Positions 1 through 5,628 of a stretch of DNA of 5,628 bases are shown here, one piece after another (the first letter of the stretch is position 1; each line of letters starts with the position of its first letter). The DNA lies in NCBI GenBank assembly GCA_023435965.1, contig JAEZLC010000009.1, positions 1 through 5,628 on the forward strand, given 5' to 3'. The notes under the pieces were generated by a model that was not told the DNA's origin, ran no database searches, and worked only from the letters and a program-made list of their open reading frames with translations. A program made the position numbers and the translations under genes. The DNA comes from Cyanobacteria bacterium OH_CDB_58 (GTDB lineage: Bacteria > Cyanobacteriota > Vampirovibrionia > Gastranaerophilales > Gastranaerophilaceae).

Positions 1-235
1 CAATATTTTGGATTAAGTTTCGGCCGCATTTTCTACAAAATTCAGAAGAGTATAAATTAGAACTTTGGCATTCAGGACAAACCTTTATAACTTCAAAATC
101 GCAAAAAGCACAGTTAGGCTGTCCAAAAGGCGTAAGAGACTTACAAGCAGGACAAATCATGTTGACTTTTACACCGCAAAAGTCGCATCGCAGCACATTA
201 TTTTTTATTTCACTTCTGCACCTTGGGCAATACAT
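1..235 (-). CDS. Tandem zinc-ribbon protein, partial (C-terminus beyond left edge)
   Basis: The minus-strand frame opens with ATG at 235-233 and stays open to the window edge, giving 78 residues of a longer protein. They form three consecutive zinc ribbons: C3/C6 with C17/C20 (CPRC, CDFC), C28/C31 with C42/C45 (CPAC, CAFC), and C53/C56 with C67/C70 (CPEC, CRKC). Each Cys-x2-Cys pair lies 10 residues from its partner pair, as in zinc-ribbon and double-zinc-ribbon (DZANK-like) domains. A Shine-Dalgarno AGGA (245-242) sits 6 nt before the ATG, which supports this start. Such ribbons often precede membrane or signalling domains, but the rest is not visible, so function is unassigned. The gene lies 71 bp downstream of the sigma gene on the same strand and could be its co-transcribed third gene, or use its own promoter in that AT-rich gap. 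The coding and zinc-binding calls are secure; the role is unknown. Confidence 0.88.
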   Translation of the reverse strand, partial: MYCPRCRSEIKNNVLRCDFCGVKVNMICPACKSLTPFGQPNCAFCDFEVIKVCPECQSSNLYSSEFCRKCGRNLIQNI

Positions 236-306: not shown

Positions 307-915
307 TTAGGAATTTAAATGCGTTTTTATAAGCTTGGATAATTCAAGCAATCTCTTACTAATTTCAGATTGAGAAAGGTTCAATTCTTTAGAAATTTCA
401 GACTGGGCACAGTTTTTGACATAACGCAGGTAAAAAATATCCAAAAAACATTTTTGAGGAGCATCTTTATGTATAATACATACAACATCTGCTATTCTTT
501 GAAGCAAATCTTTTTTTATTACAATTTCTTCTACGGTTTCTCTGGGGTCCTCAAAATCAAACGAAACGGAATATTGCGAATTTTCAACACTACTTCCAAC
601 AAAAGAAGATGGTTGTGAAACCGATGCTGGAGGATTATTAAATGAAACTTCATTGGTTGAAACATAGCCTTTTGAAGTTTTTCTAACTCTTCCGCTGTCT
701 TTTAAAACTGCAAGAATTGAAGTATTTACAACTTTTGAAAGATAGCTTTCAATTTTTTGCACACTTGAGTTTGAATGGAATATTATATAAGACTTTTGAA
801 ATGCTTCATTGCAAAAATCTTCAAACAAATCCTCATTACCGCTATATTTGGCATTTGACTTAACGAATTTCTCTATAAGCTGCCTTTGTTCATCCAATAA
901 TAGCACTTGGTTCAA
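307..915 (-). CDS. Divergent ECF-like sigma factor (sigma-70 family)
   Basis: The product is about 202 residues and has the two-domain plan of an ECF sigma factor. Residues 28-80 resemble sigma region 2, with an acidic start (NEDLFEDF), then a segment like the usual 'WL..V.N..L...R' pattern (ESYLSKVVNTS...VLKDSGRVRK, 56-79), here with Tyr for the common Trp. A Ser/Asn/Pro-rich linker (about 86-125) follows. Residues 137-200 resemble region 4.2, with a helix-turn-helix around QSEISKELNLSQSEISKRLL (171-190) for -35 recognition. The leading region 2.1 helix is short or missing, so this is a divergent member. The start is uncertain: TTG at 915-913 is the longest choice, GTG at 906-904 (9 nt after GAGAG) is an alternative, and no ATG occurs in frame within the gene. 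It follows the large anti-sigma-like gene by 46 bp without a terminator, which supports a sigma/anti-sigma operon. Target promoters cannot be read from this window. Confidence 0.75.
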   Translation of the reverse strand: MNQVLLLDEQRQLIEKFVKSNAKYSGNEDLFEDFCNEAFQKSYIIFHSNSSVQKIESYLSKVVNTSILAVLKDSGRVRKTSKGYVSTNEVSFNNPPASVSQPSSFVGSSVENSQYSVSFDFEDPRETVEEIVIKKDLLQRIADVVCIIHKDAPQKCFLDIFYLRYVKNCAQSEISKELNLSQSEISKRLLELSKLIKTHLNS

Positions 916-961: not shown

Positions 962-3900
962 TTAAAAATTAATGACTAGTGTTAAAGGATAAACGTTCGC
1001 TTTTAAAAGTTTATTCATAACCGGATTGTTTTGTCCCAATTCAGCTGAATCAGGAAGTTGTGGGACATTTATGTACTTCAAGGTCGCTTTAATACTTTGT
1101 AACACAATCTCATCAACCTGCTGAGATCCGCTAGAGTTCAATACTTCCAGCTTCTTAATATTATTGTCTTTACCAACTTCTATAAGTACTTTTACGCCGT
1201 CATTGTAAGCAAATTCAGTCGCATTTAGTAGATCATTTTTCAAATTAATCTGTAGATTTTTACCGGCAATTTGTAAATATTTCGTAAACAATTCACTAGT
1301 TGCTATGTACTGAGGAACCTCCCAAGAGATTTTTGTTATAGTAATCGTTGACGGATTTTCATCAAAAACATTAGTCATAGATTTATTTAAGTCTCTTGGT
1401 GCTGAGGCTGTTGAACCTTTTGCAAGCTCCATGCCTACAGGAGCTGTTGACTCACCTCCTGCGATAGAGAACTCTCCATTTTCTACTGGCATAGCACCGG
1501 TTTGATCTGGCAACATAGGAGACATTGGTTCTTGAACCTGTTCACTTATCGCTTCTGAATCATTTTTCATTTTATTGTTATATGCAATTACTCCAAAGAC
1601 AGAAGATAGCAACAGACAGCCAACAATTAAAGATGAAGCAATTATCACCTTTTTATCTTTCATAATTGAAAGCCCGTCCGGTTTGTTCACAATGTATTCT
1701 ATCTGCTCATCAACTTCATCCGGCATCTCTAGATTGTTCGAATTTTTATACAAAAGCTGTAAGTCTTGCTGATCGTTATTTACAGGAGCAGCAGGAATAT
1801 ATTCTTCAAAATCAGACTCTTCGTCATCTTGCGAATACTCTATTTGGACAGTTTCTACTTCCTCTTTATCATCTTCATCATCGCTTATAACTTCAAGATC
1901 ACCCTCTTCATCATCTTCATCTATATCAGTTAACAAATCGATGTCTTCATTTTCGTCGCTGGTAAGCTGTATGGAATTGTCAAAAGAAGTTACTTCCTCT
2001 TCAGACTTGAGTTCATTCCCCGCATTGATGAATTCTTTAAACTCATCCGAGCTTTCAGTCTCATCTTGTAAAAACTCACTCGGTTCAAAAGCGAACGAAT
2101 CAGATGCTTCAGCTGCAACATCATCTTGTTTTGAAAACTCGATGAAATTATCTTCCGAATCAACTTCCTGTTCAGTATTTTTTGTATCTTCTGCAATATT
2201 TGCTGGAAACTCATCGTCTTCTTCATCAGACAATGTAACAAGCTCACCGTCTTCATCTTCTTCAAATGCTTCAGTTTGATAATCTAAGGATGAAGCTTGT
2301 TCGACTTCTTCGGACTTCGTTTCTTCAACTATTTCTTCGTAGTCATTTAAATCTTGTGAGAAATCTTCAAGTTCCTCTAACTCAGAAACTTCATTGTGAA
2401 TATCTTCAGAAAGATCAAACTCTGTTAATTCTTCGTCTTCAATAAATTCCTCTTGCAAGATATCTTCTGATTCAGATGATTCTAGAGCTTCACAATCATG
2501 AACTTCCATCTCCTCAAGTTCTACAATAGTTTCATCCAATGTTTTTGACAAGTCAGCCAAAAAATCCGATGTAGATTGCTCATCATCTATTTCACCGTCA
2601 TGAAGCAAGGCTGATTCAAGTTCATCCTGCTCTTGAAACTCTTTAAAAATATCATCTGCATCTTTAAGAAAATTGAATTCAGGCTCTTCTGATAATTCTT
2701 CTACTGTTTCACTTTCAATAGGTTGAATTCCTTGTTCAGTAAGGTTATTCAACTCAAATTCATGATCAGCAATTTCAATATGCTCTTCAAACAAATCATC
2801 AATAGAATCCAGGCAATCGCATTTTTCACACACTTCTGCACTCTCATCCTCTGGAAGAAGGGGGATAACACTATCTTCAATAACGATTTTATTCCTTTCT
2901 TCTGGGGTAGGAAGCAGCTCAACTTCAAAAGAAGACAGATCACAATATTCACCATTTTTTGCATTTAGGTCAGCCAGTTCATCATGAGGCTCCGATGCTG
3001 AACCTGCTACAGTTTCCTTTGTATTTTCTTCTTCAATAAGAAGCGTATCATCTTGTTCTAAATCAAAAATATCATCTTCAATAAGGGTGCTATTTTCATT
3101 TCCGATTTCTTCTAAGAAATCCGTGATATCTTCATCTTGTGCTGTCAACTCATGATTTATAGTTGGAGAAAGTGCTTTTACTCCTGATTCAACAACAGCT
3201 GCCGCTGATTCAGCAATACTTGCACCCGCTTCAGCAACGGAAGAAGCAGCTTCAACACCAGATATTACAGCATTAACAGAAGATTGAGCACTCGCTGCTG
3301 CGGCTGTTCCTGCAATAACCGCTCCAGCTCCTAACACTCCTGCAGCCAGTCCAATCGCAGCACCTCCGTTTTTATCTTTAGGATTTTTTTCAATCATCTT
3401 ATCAGAAGGATTGTCAAAAAGTTCACCTAAAATATCTTCTTCGTCCAGTTCATCTCCGGTTTCTAATGGGTTGATTTCTATAATCTCTTCTTTGCCGACA
3501 TATTTTTCAGAATCGACAGCCTGAGCACCAATTATGGAAAGAGTATGGTCCTCAAAAAATTCCGTTCTTAATGACATATTTTTAACAATAGCTTCAAAGT
3601 CGTAAAGTTCTACAAAATTAGCTCTACATTCAGGGCAATTCACCAAATGTTTAATGAATGATTTTTTAGAACTGTTGTCTATTTCTTTATCAATGTAGGA
3701 CAGATAATAATTTTCGAAATCACTATGATCAAATGGAGCAACAATATGGTTTTCAGAACTGATTATATTAATCAAATCCTCAATAGGGCAAAGAGCATCT
3801 GAGCTCATCAAATAATAATCGCCTGAATCTAAGGACCTGCTTATTTGCTCTCTTGATACAAAACCTGCAAGCTGTGCTTTTTTTAATTGGGAATCAACTT

Positions 3901-4243
3901 TTATTCCGACATAAAAATCGGCTAAAATATCATATTTAAAATGAGATTTTGGTACTGAAATAAAATTGTTATCAGAAACTATTCTGACTTCGACCTTCCA
4001 TCCATTGTAATAAAGATCCGAGATTTCGAATTCTTCGTTTACAGGAGCTATCTTAAACAAATTTTTAGATATATTAACAACTATACCCTGAGTGACAAGA
4101 TAGTCAGCAAATGTATCCAATGCGACGATAGAGGCGTAAGCTCTCTTTCGTTGAAACTCATTTTCTACAGGTGCAGCGATTATTTTTGCGTACTTAACTG
4201 CATCATTTGTAATGACTAACTCATTGTTTATAGGTAATTCCAT
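962..4243 (-). CDS. Giant membrane-anchored anti-sigma factor-like protein: DUF1822-like, zinc finger, acidic region, TonB-like C-terminus
   Basis: The product has 1093 residues. Residues 28-160 resemble cyanobacterial DUF1822 (pattern RAY..., YL...GI, ISDL, VEVR, VPK, AQLAGF). Residues 173-206 form an anti-sigma (zf-HC2/ZAS) finger: H173-x25-H199-x3-C203-x2-C206, ending in HLVNCPECR. A Gly/Ala-rich stretch (293-352) follows. Residues 371-850 are extremely acidic: I count 181 Asp/Glu against 15 Lys/Arg in 480, with a cysteine cluster C472/C475/C477. One clear membrane helix lies at 866-888 after KDKK, predicting N-in, C-out. After a flexible linker, residues 966-1093 resemble a TonB C-terminal domain (KVLIEVGKDNNIKKLEVLNS with SSG at 1037-1039, then VDEIVLQSI). 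AGGAG (4256-4252) lies 8 nt before the ATG and supports the start. The likely role is to hold the sigma factor encoded 46 bp downstream at the inner membrane and release it on an envelope signal. Zinc finger, helix and acidic region are visible; DUF1822 and TonB are recognised by pattern; the role is inferred. Confidence 0.8.
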   Translation of the reverse strand: MELPINNELVITNDAVKYAKIIAAPVENEFQRKRAYASIVALDTFADYLVTQGIVVNISKNLFKIAPVNEEFEISDLYYNGWKVEVRIVSDNNFISVPKSHFKYDILADFYVGIKVDSQLKKAQLAGFVSREQISRSLDSGDYYLMSSDALCPIEDLINIISSENHIVAPFDHSDFENYYLSYIDKEIDNSSKKSFIKHLVNCPECRANFVELYDFEAIVKNMSLRTEFFEDHTLSIIGAQAVDSEKYVGKEEIIEINPLETGDELDEEDILGELFDNPSDKMIEKNPKDKNGGAAIGLAAGVLGAGAVIAGTAAAASAQSSVNAVISGVEAASSVAEAGASIAESAAAVVESGVKALSPTINHELTAQDEDITDFLEEIGNENSTLIEDDIFDLEQDDTLLIEEENTKETVAGSASEPHDELADLNAKNGEYCDLSSFEVELLPTPEERNKIVIEDSVIPLLPEDESAEVCEKCDCLDSIDDLFEEHIEIADHEFELNNLTEQGIQPIESETVEELSEEPEFNFLKDADDIFKEFQEQDELESALLHDGEIDDEQSTSDFLADLSKTLDETIVELEEMEVHDCEALESSESEDILQEEFIEDEELTEFDLSEDIHNEVSELEELEDFSQDLNDYEEIVEETKSEEVEQASSLDYQTEAFEEDEDGELVTLSDEEDDEFPANIAEDTKNTEQEVDSEDNFIEFSKQDDVAAEASDSFAFEPSEFLQDETESSDEFKEFINAGNELKSEEEVTSFDNSIQLTSDENEDIDLLTDIDEDDEEGDLEVISDDEDDKEEVETVQIEYSQDDEESDFEEYIPAAPVNNDQQDLQLLYKNSNNLEMPDEVDEQIEYIVNKPDGLSIMKDKKVIIASSLIVGCLLLSSVFGVIAYNNKMKNDSEAISEQVQEPMSPMLPDQTGAMPVENGEFSIAGGESTAPVGMELAKGSTASAPRDLNKSMTNVFDENPSTITITKISWEVPQYIATSELFTKYLQIAGKNLQINLKNDLLNATEFAYNDGVKVLIEVGKDNNIKKLEVLNSSGSQQVDEIVLQSIKATLKYINVPQLPDSAELGQNNPVMNKLLKANVYPLTLVINF
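965..1348 (-). other. TonB-C-like extracytoplasmic domain of the anti-sigma protein
   Basis: Residues 966-1093 follow a Ser/Pro/Gly/Met-rich linker after the membrane helix. The stretch with EVGKDNNIKKLEVLNSSGS, then VDEIVLQSI and PQLP matches the strand-SSG-helix-strand layout of TonB C-terminal domains ('dG.v....v..SSG...lD..vl.ai'). In true TonB this domain contacts outer-membrane receptors; here it may sense or tether to an envelope partner. No ExbB or ExbD genes are present in the window. Confidence 0.55.
1580..1648 (-). other. Transmembrane helix of the anti-sigma protein
   Basis: Residues 866-888 are a 23-residue uncharged hydrophobic run (VIIASSLIVGCLLL onward to AY) preceded by MKDKK. 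The positive charge on the N-terminal side predicts a cytoplasmic N-terminus and an outside C-terminus. It contains one cysteine, C876. Confidence 0.9.
1694..3133 (-). other. Very acidic low-complexity region of the anti-sigma protein
   Basis: Residues 371-850 contain 181 Asp/Glu and 15 Lys/Arg by hand count; residues 761-810 alone have 27 acids in 50. GAA/GAT codon richness makes the plus strand pyrimidine-rich here (TTC, ATC, TCATC), which creates spurious plus-strand reading frames. Degenerate short motifs of the form [DE]-[IFL]-[FL]-x-[DE] recur, for example DFLEEI at 375, DLFEEH at 483, DIFKEF at 531, DFLADL at 560 and EFLQDE at 723. It is probably disordered, with short hydrophobic patches. 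Confidence 0.85.
3626..3727 (-). other. Anti-sigma zinc finger (zf-HC2/ZAS) within the large protein
   Basis: Residues 173-206 contain H173, H199, C203 and C206, with YLSYIDKEID between the first two ligands and HLVNCPECR at the end. The His/Cys-x(24-25)-His-x3-Cys-x2-Cys pattern is that of zinc-binding anti-sigma domains such as RsrA and ChrR, where this fold clamps the sigma factor. All four expected ligand positions are filled. Confidence 0.8.
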
Positions 4244-4290: not shown

Positions 4291-4310
4291 ACTCTCCTAT
4301 ATATGAGAGT
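4291..4310. repeat. Operator-like 20-bp inverted repeat
   Basis: ACTCTC-N8-GAGAGT, with an inner TATATA, is symmetric at nine of ten base pairs around 4300.5. It covers the -35 position relative to the candidate minus-strand TATAAT at 4280-4275, a good place for a repressor or activator of the anti-sigma/sigma operon. No regulator family is recognised. Confidence 0.45.
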
Positions 4311-4343
4311 GCATCCTTAAATAAAATATTCCAAAATAATTGA

Positions 4344-4433: not shown

Positions 4434-4862
4434 ATGATTAACGGTGTAAATTTCGGAGCTATTTCAACTGATCCGACTATTAGGTTATCAGATGAAACTA
4501 TCTCTCAAGCTCATAACAACGCAGCACCAACAGCCCCTTCCACTCCAGCTGCTGCCACAAATGTTCAGGGCGATTCATTTGAGAAAAAAGGCAAAGGCAA
4601 AAAAGCTGCAATAGGATTTATAGCTACAGCCGCTGCTGCACTAGCAGGATTGGCATACGCAGTAAAATCTGGCAAGCTTGCAAAAGTTGAACTCGGCGAT
4701 GAGGCAAAAATTTTAGAAAAAGCTAAAAATATAGCTGCTGATGTAGGCCAAAAAGTATTAGACCTCTCAAAAGCCGCATACGCAAAAGTAAAAGACATTA
4801 TCCCCAAATTTAAAAAAGGTGCAGAAAAAGCTGCGGAAGCAACAACAGAAGCGGCAACATAA
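4434..4862 (+). CDS. Small Ala/Lys-rich protein with one membrane helix, unknown function
   Basis: The product has 142 residues. The N-terminus (MINGVNFGAI) leads into an Ala/Pro/Thr-rich, probably disordered stretch (about 29-43), then a basic patch KKGKGKK (51-57), a hydrophobic helix AAIGFIATAAAALAGLAYA (58-76), and an Ala/Lys-rich amphipathic helix (about 88-140) with one break at DIIPKF. The basic patch before the helix predicts N-in. The layout, a Gly/Ala membrane helix followed by a charged helical tail, recalls YtxH-like small proteins, though the sequence does not clearly place it there. It has its own strong ribosome binding site, ends 14 bp before a terminator, and so is probably monocistronic. 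It is divergent from the anti-sigma gene and could be under the same control. Its KxK-xx-AAIG segment resembles the Gly/Ala stretch of that large protein, which may be only composition. I do not recognise the family. Confidence 0.8.
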   Translation: MINGVNFGAISTDPTIRLSDETISQAHNNAAPTAPSTPAAATNVQGDSFEKKGKGKKAAIGFIATAAAALAGLAYAVKSGKLAKVELGDEAKILEKAKNIAADVGQKVLDLSKAAYAKVKDIIPKFKKGAEKAAEATTEAAT

Positions 4863-4876
4863 TAAAATCTTTTATT

Positions 4877-4910
4877 AAAAAATAGACTGAGAAATCAGTC
4901 TATTTTTTTT
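4877..4910. terminator. Bidirectional Rho-independent terminator between convergent genes
   Basis: A perfect 14-bp stem (six A-T pairs, then TAGACTGA at 4883-4890 pairing with TCAGTCTA at 4895-4902) closes a GAAA tetraloop (4891-4894). Eight T residues follow on the plus strand (4903-4910) and six on the minus strand (4882-4877). It should stop transcription of the small gene on plus and of pheA on minus. The pheA stop codon TAG (4902-4900) lies inside the stem. Confidence 0.93.
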
Positions 4911-5628
4911 GCCTTGGATATGAACCATTAAACCTATAAAAAGTAATATATTGCTGAATTTCTCCTAGAGCGTTACTGACTTTTTCATCATTGCAATGAC
5001 CCTCAAAATCAATAAAAAACATGTATTCACCAAGATTCTTTTTTGATGGCCTTGAATCTATATACAATAAATTCAGCTGATATTTATCGAACACACTCAA
5101 AACTTTATGCAATGCACCTGCAATATTTTTGGTAGAAAAAGAGATACTTGTTTTATCATATCCTGTTGACTCAAGTCTATTTCTGCCAATCAACACAAAA
5201 CGGGTTTTATTGTCTTTCTCATCATTTATTGACGTATCTAAAATATTAAGATCAAAAAACTTTGCGGCCATTTCATTTGCTATTGCAGCATAAGTATCAT
5301 CAAGTTGTGAAATTCTTTTAGCCGCAGCACTTGTCGAAGTTTCTTCCAGTATATGTATATTGTCAAATTTTTCGTCAAGATATTTAGCACACTGTGCAAG
5401 TGCTTGGGGATGAGAAATTACTGTCTTTACGTCTTCAATATTCTGTCCTCTAGAAAGTAAACAATGCTCAACGGGAAGAACCACTTCTGCCATTATCTTT
5501 ACATCCGCATCATCTACTCTTATCAGATTGTCTATGGCTTCTCTAACGATTCCTTCTATAGAATTTTCAATAGGAATAACCCCAAAAGAGTTATTGTTTT
5601 CGGCAACCGAAGTAAAAACCGACTTAAT
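4900..5628 (-). CDS. pheA: Prephenate dehydratase with ACT domain, N-terminus beyond right edge
   Basis: The enzyme converts prephenate to phenylpyruvate, the committed step to phenylalanine, in the cytoplasm. The frame is open to the window edge, so 242 residues are visible. The ATG at 5493 is internal, because family motifs lie upstream of it: VIPIENSIEG at fragment residues 16-25. Further motifs are VEHCLLSR (53-60), SHPQALAQC (72-80), TSTSAAAKRI (97-106) and the catalytic-region TRF (142-144). A C-terminal ACT domain follows, with GALH (171-174) and DSRP (191-194), the positions that bind phenylalanine for feedback inhibition; the usual ESRP has a conservative Asp here. Monofunctional enzymes are about 270-280 residues, so roughly 35-45 N-terminal residues are missing. 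There is no visible chorismate mutase domain, though one could precede the edge. The last two Lys codons and the stop are part of the terminator. Confidence 0.95.
   Translation of the reverse strand: MKSVFTSVAENNNSFGVIPIENSIEGIVREAIDNLIRVDDADVKIMAEVVLPVEHCLLSRGQNIEDVKTVISHPQALAQCAKYLDEKFDNIHILEETSTSAAAKRISQLDDTYAAIANEMAAKFFDLNILDTSINDEKDNKTRFVLIGRNRLESTGYDKTSISFSTKNIAGALHKVLSVFDKYQLNLLYIDSRPSKKNLGEYMFFIDFEGHCNDEKVSNALGEIQQYITFYRFNGSYPRQKK

What the first reader, a model, noticed from the sequence alone, without database searches (positions are those of the whole stretch)
962..4243. Single-polypeptide anti-sigma factor joining DUF1822-like, zinc-finger, acidic tether, membrane helix and TonB-like domains
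Typical zinc anti-sigma factors have about 80-300 residues. This one has 1093 and appears to combine a domain known to me mainly from cyanobacteria (DUF1822) with a ZAS finger (H173, H199, C203, C206) and, across the membrane, a TonB-C-like domain. A plausible reading is a transenvelope signalling device: the outer domain contacts an envelope partner, and the inner finger holds or frees the ECF-like sigma factor encoded next door. I recall DUF1822 genes beside sigma-70 family genes in cyanobacteria; if so, this may be an ancestral DUF1822/sigma system seen here in fused form. I have not seen this architecture described, but cannot search.
Basis: partly seen in the sequence, partly recalled or inferred. 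Interest (0 to 1): 0.72.

Follow-up and report, generated by a model that had tools for sequence, protein, structure and literature searches.

The report
Membrane anti-sigma factor with TolA-like sensor
This gene encodes one 1093-residue protein that is predicted to join a sigma-factor-binding domain inside the cell to a TolA/TonB-like domain outside the inner membrane, and it likely keeps the sigma factor encoded next door inactive until a signal reaches the cell envelope.

Summary
The 1093-aa ORF has a significant DUF1822 match (47.2 bits, cut-off 25). A modelled helix bundle (residues 166-230) aligns with the anti-sigma domains of RsiW, MucA and RslA. Then come a 615-residue acidic stretch (33% D/E), a predicted membrane helix, and a C-terminal domain whose 21 best structural matches are TolA/TonB types. 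The ECF-like sigma gene follows on the same strand. In 34 of 34 related loci with room, sigma follows this gene; in 33 of those a zinc-ribbon protein with ATPase-like and TPR-like regions follows sigma (it begins at window 235). An ECF-type promoter, TTGGAATA-N13-TGNNNTCT, lies upstream (4334-4306, minus strand; 42 of 59 loci) and suggests autoregulation. In some genomes the three genes are dispersed. In photosynthetic cyanobacteria, DUF1822 genes sit beside a sigma gene in 25 of the 30 best-scoring loci, and beside a sigma or probable sigma gene in 16 of 20 others; CHAT protease-like sensor genes often follow. Most likely this is a membrane-tethered anti-sigma factor: a new architecture built on a DUF1822/sigma pairing that was partly known. 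Sigma binding, inhibition, signal and release are untested.

The parts
962..4243 (-). Gene for the 1093-aa DUF1822 / anti-sigma-like bundle / acidic stretch / membrane helix / TolA-TonB-type protein
   Evidence: ORF; Pfam; 25 proteins including the window's own; alignment
3764..4216 (-). DUF1822 domain, residues 10-160
3554..3748 (-). Anti-sigma-like three-helix bundle, residues 166-230
3626..3727 (-). Span of putative zinc ligands H173, H199, C203, C206
   Evidence: Invariant in 25 of 25; pattern in 73 of 88 members
3410..3442 (-). Putative fourth (sigma2-binding) helix, residues 268-278, DIL..LF motif
   Evidence: L275 invariant, I271 and F276 nearly invariant in 25 sequences; outside the model; role inferred
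1664..3508 (-). Acidic stretch, residues 246-860, 33% D/E, net charge -181
1583..1648 (-). Predicted membrane helix, about residues 866-887
   Evidence: Mean hydropathy 2.34 over 19 residues from 866
965..1333 (-). TolA/TonB-type C-terminal domain, residues 971-1093
307..906 (-). ECF-like sigma factor gene, likely start GTG 906 (TTG 915 in the ORF list)
   Evidence: TIGR02937 43.1 bits, cut-off 42.9; Sigma70_r4 19.7 bits, below cut-off; alignment
2..235 (-). Start of a third gene: double zinc ribbon, then (in relatives) AAA_16-like ATPase and TPR-like regions; runs off the window
   Evidence: DZR 46.1 bits; relatives about 965-1240 aa where complete; domains
4306..4334 (-). ECF-type promoter TTGGAATA-N13-TGCACTCT
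   Evidence: role inferred
4292..4309 (-). Dyad CTCTC-ATATATA-GGAGAG overlapping the -10 box
   Evidence: Sequence; a TAG after the -10 box is found in over 80% of the aligned sites

Best explanation
The gene encodes a single 1093-residue protein with a DUF1822 domain, a predicted anti-sigma helix bundle carrying an HxxxCxxC zinc-type motif, a 615-residue acidic stretch, a predicted membrane helix and a predicted TolA/TonB-type C-terminal domain, and it likely works as a membrane-bound anti-sigma factor for the ECF-like sigma factor encoded next to it. Inferred mechanism: (1) the helix bundle (166-230), with a conserved short motif near 268-278, clamps sigma regions 4 and 2 in the cytoplasm; DUF1822 assists this as a dedicated sigma partner. 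(2) The acidic stretch is a long flexible cytoplasmic leash. (3) The C-terminal domain lies in the periplasm and contacts an envelope partner, as TolA and TonB do. (4) A change at that contact, by regulated proteolysis or by conformational change, frees sigma. (5) Sigma then transcribes its own operon from the TTGGAATA-N13-TGNNNTCT promoter, raising inhibitor, sigma and the zinc-ribbon ATPase-like protein together. Shown here: the domain order, gene order, promoter conservation and co-occurrence. Predicted: folds and topology. Untested: sigma binding, inhibition, signal, release and target genes.
For: Anti-sigma bundle: three anti-sigma structures align to the same segment, RsiW over 68 of 69 residues (Foldseek target-normalised TM 0.64, probability 0.85). 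HxxxCxxC spans helices 2 and 3, as described for class I anti-sigma domains (PMC7406223, passages seen). C-terminus: TolA/TonB types fill the first 21 rows. Gene order: sigma follows in 34 of 38 related loci, the other 4 ending in the first gene at a contig end; the zinc-ribbon gene follows in 33 of those 34. In 90 of 104 genomes with both places listed, the gene lies upstream of sigma on the same strand within 5 kb (the lists were cut, see Tried and rejected). In four genomes without sigma beside the gene, sigma lies elsewhere; in all 16 genomes of that search it is present, and the zinc-ribbon protein in 22 of 22 searched. Promoter: 36 copies of TGGAATA-N13-TGNNNTC(T/A) in 467 kb of L001-L038 against 0.2 in mononucleotide shuffles, with one upstream of the gene in 35 of these 38 loci; in 20 whole genomes 18 exact hits, 15 at this operon, reversed-pattern control 4. 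Gene splitting: in 5 genomes the DUF1822-bundle part and the acidic-helix-TolA/TonB part are consecutive genes before sigma, all with a promoter-like box. DUF1822/sigma pairing in cyanobacteria.
Confidence: 0.7

Rival explanations
1. The DUF1822 domain, not the zinc bundle, is the part that holds sigma; the bundle is an accessory or relic.
For: In photosynthetic cyanobacteria DUF1822 pairs with sigma genes without any finger: 0 of 30 examined proteins have CxxC. Among the relatives 15 of 88 members lack the full finger pattern, some still next to a sigma gene (L111, L112, L119, L155-L159).
Against: Several members without the finger pattern, such as the five split ones, still match the profile of the bundle region, though L111, L112, L118 and L119 do not; zinc-free anti-sigma domains are common (PMC7406223, passages). 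The bundle aligns with three sigma-binding domains.
Confidence: 0.15
2. It is a sigma regulator that is needed for sigma activity (a FecR-like activator or scaffold) rather than a plain inhibitor.
For: It has one membrane helix and a periplasmic TonB-type part, as expected for a cell-surface-signalling relay; PMC7406223 notes that the N-terminal residues of FecR are essential for sigma activity (passage). ExbD pairs occur in 21 of 22 relatives.
Against: TonB-dependent receptor plugs were found in only 9 of 22 relatives although the gene is widespread; FecR itself was not compared here.
Confidence: 0.1
3. It is an extra TolA/TonB-type envelope protein whose long cytoplasmic part has nothing to do with sigma; gene order only reflects co-regulation.
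For: The C-terminal domain is clearly TolA/TonB-like. In eight genomes the gene is a short ORF (493-562 aa) on another contig than sigma; in the seven whose sigma surroundings were fetched, no part of it lies near sigma. Some genomes have the gene and no sigma match at E 1e-10.
Against: In 21 of 22 relatives a separate TonB_2 protein lies on the same contig close to the ExbD pair. The bundle aligns with anti-sigma domains. DUF1822 pairs with sigma genes in cyanobacteria without this fusion.
Confidence: 0.05

Closest known systems
Class I anti-sigma factors (RsiW, MucA, RslA; RsrA/ChrR type)
   Same: Three-helix bundle with HxxxCxxC over helices 2 and 3, a membrane helix behind it, sigma gene adjacent
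   Different: The bundle is internal, after a 165-residue DUF1822 part, and is separated from the membrane helix by about 630 residues; the outer part is a TolA/TonB-type domain
DUF1822 genes beside ECF sigma and EACC2-caspase genes (eLife 2021, PMC8195603; passages seen)
   Same: DUF1822 next to an ECF-type sigma gene; here also seen in loci with CHAT plus CHASE2 or periplasmic-binding proteins
   Different: There DUF1822 is a separate protein, called a TPR protein; here it is fused to an anti-sigma-like bundle and a membrane part
FecR-type cell-surface signalling sigma regulators (recalled; such papers seen in listings only)
   Same: A one-pass regulator linking a periplasmic contact to an ECF sigma
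   Different: The periplasmic domain here is itself TolA/TonB-like; 13 of the 22 relatives searched had no TonB-dependent receptor plug match
TolA and TonB C-terminal domains
   Same: Predicted helix-strand-strand-helix-strand fold
   Different: The cytoplasmic side carries about 860 residues with DUF1822 and an anti-sigma-like bundle; the membrane helix has no histidine (sequence; TonB motif recalled)
Cyanobacterial SigR, r4_2*NB-ARC*TPR_MalT (PMC11119718, passages seen)
   Same: Links a sigma region 4 with an ATPase and MalT-like TPR
   Different: Here the ATPase-like protein is a separate gene with an N-terminal double zinc ribbon

Membership tests
Class I anti-sigma factor (ASDI, PMC7406223) | Three-helix sigma4-binding bundle | tested here: met
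   Model helices 174-184, 190-202, 204-225; RsiW, MucA, RslA alignments; fold only, binding untested
Class I anti-sigma factor (ASDI, PMC7406223) | The domain is N-terminal | tested here: not met
   Residues 166-230 of 1093, after DUF1822; hence described as working like one, not filed as a standard member
Class I anti-sigma factor (ASDI, PMC7406223) | Fourth helix, after a linker, that binds sigma2 | tested here: inconclusive
   Conserved DIL..LF motif at 271-276, outside the modelled segment
Class I anti-sigma factor (ASDI, PMC7406223) | Hx3Cx2C over helices 2 and 3 (optional in the family) | tested here: met
   H199, C203, C206
Class I anti-sigma factor (ASDI, PMC7406223) | Cognate ECF sigma encoded nearby | tested here: met
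   Window 307-906; 34 of 34 loci with room; 90 of 104 genomes, cut lists
Class I anti-sigma factor (ASDI, PMC7406223) | Binds and inhibits the sigma factor | not testable with these tools
   Needs bench work or a two-chain co-fold
DUF1822 (PF08852) | Score over the curated cut-off | tested here: met
   47.2 against 25 bits
DUF1822 (PF08852) | Match over the full 370-position model | tested here: not met
   Positions 2-153 only
TonB C-terminal families (PF13103, PF03544) | Score over the curated cut-off | tested here: not met
   Window protein 16.1 against 22 and 15.5 against 24.6; in 19 of 22 relatives searched the gene has a listed TonB_2 match over the cut-off
TonB/TolA C-terminal fold | Structural match | tested here: met
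   [not shown]
ECF sigma factor (TIGR02937) | Score over the curated cut-off | tested here: met
   43.1 against 42.9 bits
ECF sigma factor | Recognisable regions 2 and 4 in Pfam | tested here: inconclusive
   Region 4 below cut-off, no region 2 match

The most novel reading that the evidence does not exclude
DUF1822 is a phylum-wide sigma-factor adaptor of cyanobacteria and their gut relatives, with a restriction-endonuclease-like fold that seems to have lost its active site. In photosynthetic cyanobacteria it links ECF sigma factors to caspase-like CHAT sensors that may cut it to release sigma. In Gastranaerophilales it was fused to its own transmembrane TolA/TonB-type sensor, forming, with a zinc-ribbon STAND-type ATPase, a three-protein envelope-to-transcription switch kept in most genomes of the order.
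Probability: 0.3. Interest if true: 0.77.

Novelty: new variant of a known kind. Interest (0 to 1): 0.62.

Why it matters
It gives a concrete, testable role to DUF1822, a domain of unknown function that only two papers in the searched library mention. It also points to a widespread, apparently uncharacterised signalling locus in Gastranaerophilales: a search for that name together with 'sigma factor' found no paper. If right, a single polypeptide spans from RNA polymerase control to the periplasm, and the same sigma partner is wired to caspase-like sensors in cyanobacteria.

Tried and rejected
Regulon beyond the operon: the exact promoter pattern in 20 genomes gave 18 hits, 15 at this operon and 3 elsewhere, against 4 control hits; with one mismatch 174 against 109. 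One recurrent one-mismatch site (L149) appears to lie inside a mannose-1-phosphate guanylyltransferase-like ORF and was dropped.

TonB-dependent receptor as the general partner: plug domains in only 9 of 22 genomes.

Acidic stretch tied to presence of the ATPase-like protein: rejected, because that protein is present in 22 of 22 genomes, including those with short, hardly acidic stretches.

Catalytic nuclease reading of DUF1822: the fold resembles PD-(D/E)XK enzymes, but I saw no conserved PD...(D/E)XK signature by eye; activity was not testable. Families missing from the VIA list are not thereby excluded.

Limits of counts; coordinates typed from the listings, which show only the best matches, plus three sigma places (G252, G297, G339) taken where they were known to be apart; without these three it is 90 of 101. 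Weaker sigma matches, which include dispersed forms, were not listed, so 90 of 104 leans upward. Of the 14 apart, G137, G224, G359 and G381 have the C-terminal half of a copy beside sigma at a contig end; G028 and G120 were not examined; for G305 the sigma surroundings were not fetched. One search's 160 of 192 is a lower bound: for example G008, G011, G020 and G022 lack that match but match PF08852. One search dropped three duplicate loci (L089, L090, L107) and includes two cyanobacterial ones (L080, L086); its L109 hit is a chance one, the real box being seen. One search dropped the duplicates and loci L039-L088. (52 of 56) left out loci already known to lack the promoter (L105, L110-L113, L115, L116, L119), so (42 of 59) is the fairer count. 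A Fisher test announced in the script was not run. One search's 80 ORFs include the window's own protein and three duplicate loci.

Paper searches: seen as listings only, save the papers opened; one search was useless. Bell et al. 2017 on a Nostoc ECF/anti-sigma pair was seen only as a reference.

Odds: after re-checking (25, not 26, cyanobacterial loci; sigma-negative genomes; weak profile comparison) I lowered the main confidence from 0.72 to 0.70 and the novel case from 0.33 to 0.30, and raised two rivals by 0.01.
Full report
What is in the window. On the minus strand lie, in order, a 1093-codon ORF (4243-962), a sigma-like ORF (915-307; likely real start GTG 906, since most homologues begin MLLxEEQR) and the first 78 codons of a zinc-ribbon protein (235-2, running off the window). 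Flanking are a small alanine/lysine-rich ORF (4434-4862, plus) and a prephenate dehydratase gene (5628-4900, minus, cut by the window end). No Rfam family at gathering threshold and no tRNA was found. No whole genome is held for the window; that it comes from a Gastranaerophilales-type bacterium is inferred from its relatives.

The protein. Pfam gives DUF1822 with 47.2 bits (cut-off 25), and zf-HC2, TonB_2 and TonB_C below their cut-offs. A search with residues 1-240 gave 25 proteins of 837-1102 aa, the window's own among them; aligned in full they keep H173, H199, C203 and C206 in 25 of 25, and conserved positions run through the C-terminal domain. One is named by its source as a DUF1822 family protein of a Candidatus Gastranaerophilales bacterium. 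Residues 246-860 have 33% D/E and 3.7% K/R (net -181); the best hydrophobic helix starts at 866. Among 80 family ORFs with a clear helix the stretch is 86-889 residues long, median D/E 0.345.

Relatives and gene order. A scan of species genomes gave 38 loci; 33 of the 38 record titles name Candidatus Gastranaerophilales. In 34 of 38 the sigma gene follows on the same strand; the other four end in the first gene at a contig end. In 33 of those 34 the zinc-ribbon protein follows. That protein has a double zinc ribbon over the cut-off, and AAA_16-like, AAA_22-like and TPR-like matches, some over and some under their cut-offs. Over 192 genomes of the order, the sigma profile matched in 182 (E at most 1e-10) and the first-gene profile in 160 (E at most 1e-5), a lower bound. 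Of the 10 without a sigma match at least 6 have the first gene. Of 104 genomes with both places listed, 90 have the first gene upstream of sigma on the same strand within 5 kb and 14 have them on different contigs; the lists were cut and lean towards strong matches. Of those 14, four carry the C-terminal half of a copy beside sigma at a contig end. In eight others the first gene is a short ORF of 493-562 aa; the sigma surroundings of seven of these, fetched, hold neither it nor the zinc-ribbon gene. In four genomes with no sigma beside the first gene the sigma lies elsewhere (16 of 16 genomes searched have it), and the zinc-ribbon protein was present in 22 of 22 genomes searched, dispersed ones included. 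The three short forms read in detail have stretches of 86-113 residues with 10-18% D/E.

Natural variants. In five genomes (L155-L159) the protein is split: DUF1822 plus bundle (298-327 aa), then an acidic-helix-TolA/TonB ORF (635-690 aa), then sigma, then the zinc-ribbon protein. The full finger pattern is kept in 73 of 88 members examined and missing in 15, including all five split ones. In L112 and L105 the sigma gene itself carries a long acidic insertion between its ends.

Promoter. Upstream of the first gene is a conserved box pair, consensus ttTTGGAATAttTTTTtt..aa.TGt.aTCTa.ataaaTAGag (52 of 56 preselected loci; 42 of 59 in the less selected count). In the window it is at 4334-4306, minus strand, about 60 bases before the start codon. 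The form TGGAATA-N13-TGNNNTC(T/A) occurs 36 times in 467 kb of L001-L038 against 0.2 in mononucleotide shuffles, and 35 of these 38 loci have a box upstream of the gene. In 20 genomes the exact form gave 18 hits in 16 genomes, 15 at this operon, control 4. This is the expected sign of ECF autoregulation; that this sigma reads it is inferred.

Cyanobacteria. Of 386 genomes of the phylum, 240 match DUF1822; the listed genomes of about 2 Mb have one copy, larger ones often several. Of the 30 best-scoring loci fetched, 25 have an ORF with a sigma-like region next to DUF1822 (in the other five, short flanks may hide it); five of these ORFs were scanned and score about 100-110 bits for sigma-70/ECF. 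None of the 30 DUF1822 proteins has CxxC. In 20 further loci that I chose down the ranking, 6 have the same sigma type, 10 have a 220-291 aa upstream ORF of one homologous family, and 4 have neither. One of the ten matches sigma-70/ECF at E 4e-10, just under the cut-off; five of eight others have weak sigma matches, E 0.018-0.08. A profile comparison of the ten with the Gastranaerophilales sigma aligns 149 columns at E 0.003 but probability only 11%, and none of note with the other cyanobacterial sigma type; Pfam sees sigma region 4, under its cut-off, in one of ten. These ten are therefore probable, not proven, sigma factors. The DUF1822 part of the window family compared as a profile with the 30 cyanobacterial proteins gives only probability 5.5%, E 0.007 over 134 columns; kinship rests on the Pfam match. 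Downstream of DUF1822 in eight loci tested (L069 and seven of the ten), seven carry a CHAT protease-like protein, three of them with CHASE2 and two with a periplasmic-binding domain. An eLife 2021 paper already notes ECF sigma and DUF1822 genes together in caspase neighbourhoods (PMC8195603, passages seen).

Envelope partners. ExbD occurs in 21 of 22 relatives, two copies each, and in the same 21 a further TonB_2 protein lies within a few kilobases on that contig; TonB-dependent receptor plugs occur in 9 of 22. The outer domain is thus an additional TolA/TonB-type domain, and its partner is unlikely to be only a TonB-dependent receptor.

Verdict. The best reading is a membrane-tethered anti-sigma factor of new architecture. 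Known: class I anti-sigma bundles, ECF autoregulation, TolA/TonB domains, DUF1822 near ECF sigma genes. Not seen in the listings of the paper searches made: this fusion, or an anti-sigma role for DUF1822. Most subscription papers are outside that library.

Noticed in passing
L069, L070, L075, L077, L081, L085, L087: Cyanobacterial DUF1822 genes are followed by CHAT protease-like proteins, some with CHASE2 or periplasmic-binding sensor domains, and in all but L069 preceded by a divergent, probably sigma-like ORF.
   Followed up: partly
window 4292-4309: A short dyad overlaps the -10 box; a TAG at the same distance recurs in relatives.
   Followed up: partly
L155-L159: The protein is split into two consecutive genes in five genomes, and the zinc ligands are lost there.
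   Followed up: yes
L112:4889-6346, L105:5911-6801: The sigma gene itself carries a long acidic insertion between its conserved ends.
   Followed up: no
window 4434-4862: A small alanine/lysine-rich ORF on the plus strand, divergent from the operon; no family match over a cut-off.
   Followed up: no
window 4900-5628: Prephenate dehydratase gene with ACT domain, cut by the window end; a related ORF was found in 27 of the 38 related loci.
   Followed up: partly
[not shown]
   Followed up: partly
G165, G252, G260, G297, G303, G305, G331, G339: Genomes where the genes are dispersed have short forms of the protein (493-562 aa).
   Followed up: partly
G151, G171, G214, G273, G296, G343: Genomes with the first gene but no sigma match at E 1e-10; a more diverged sigma was not looked for.
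   Followed up: no
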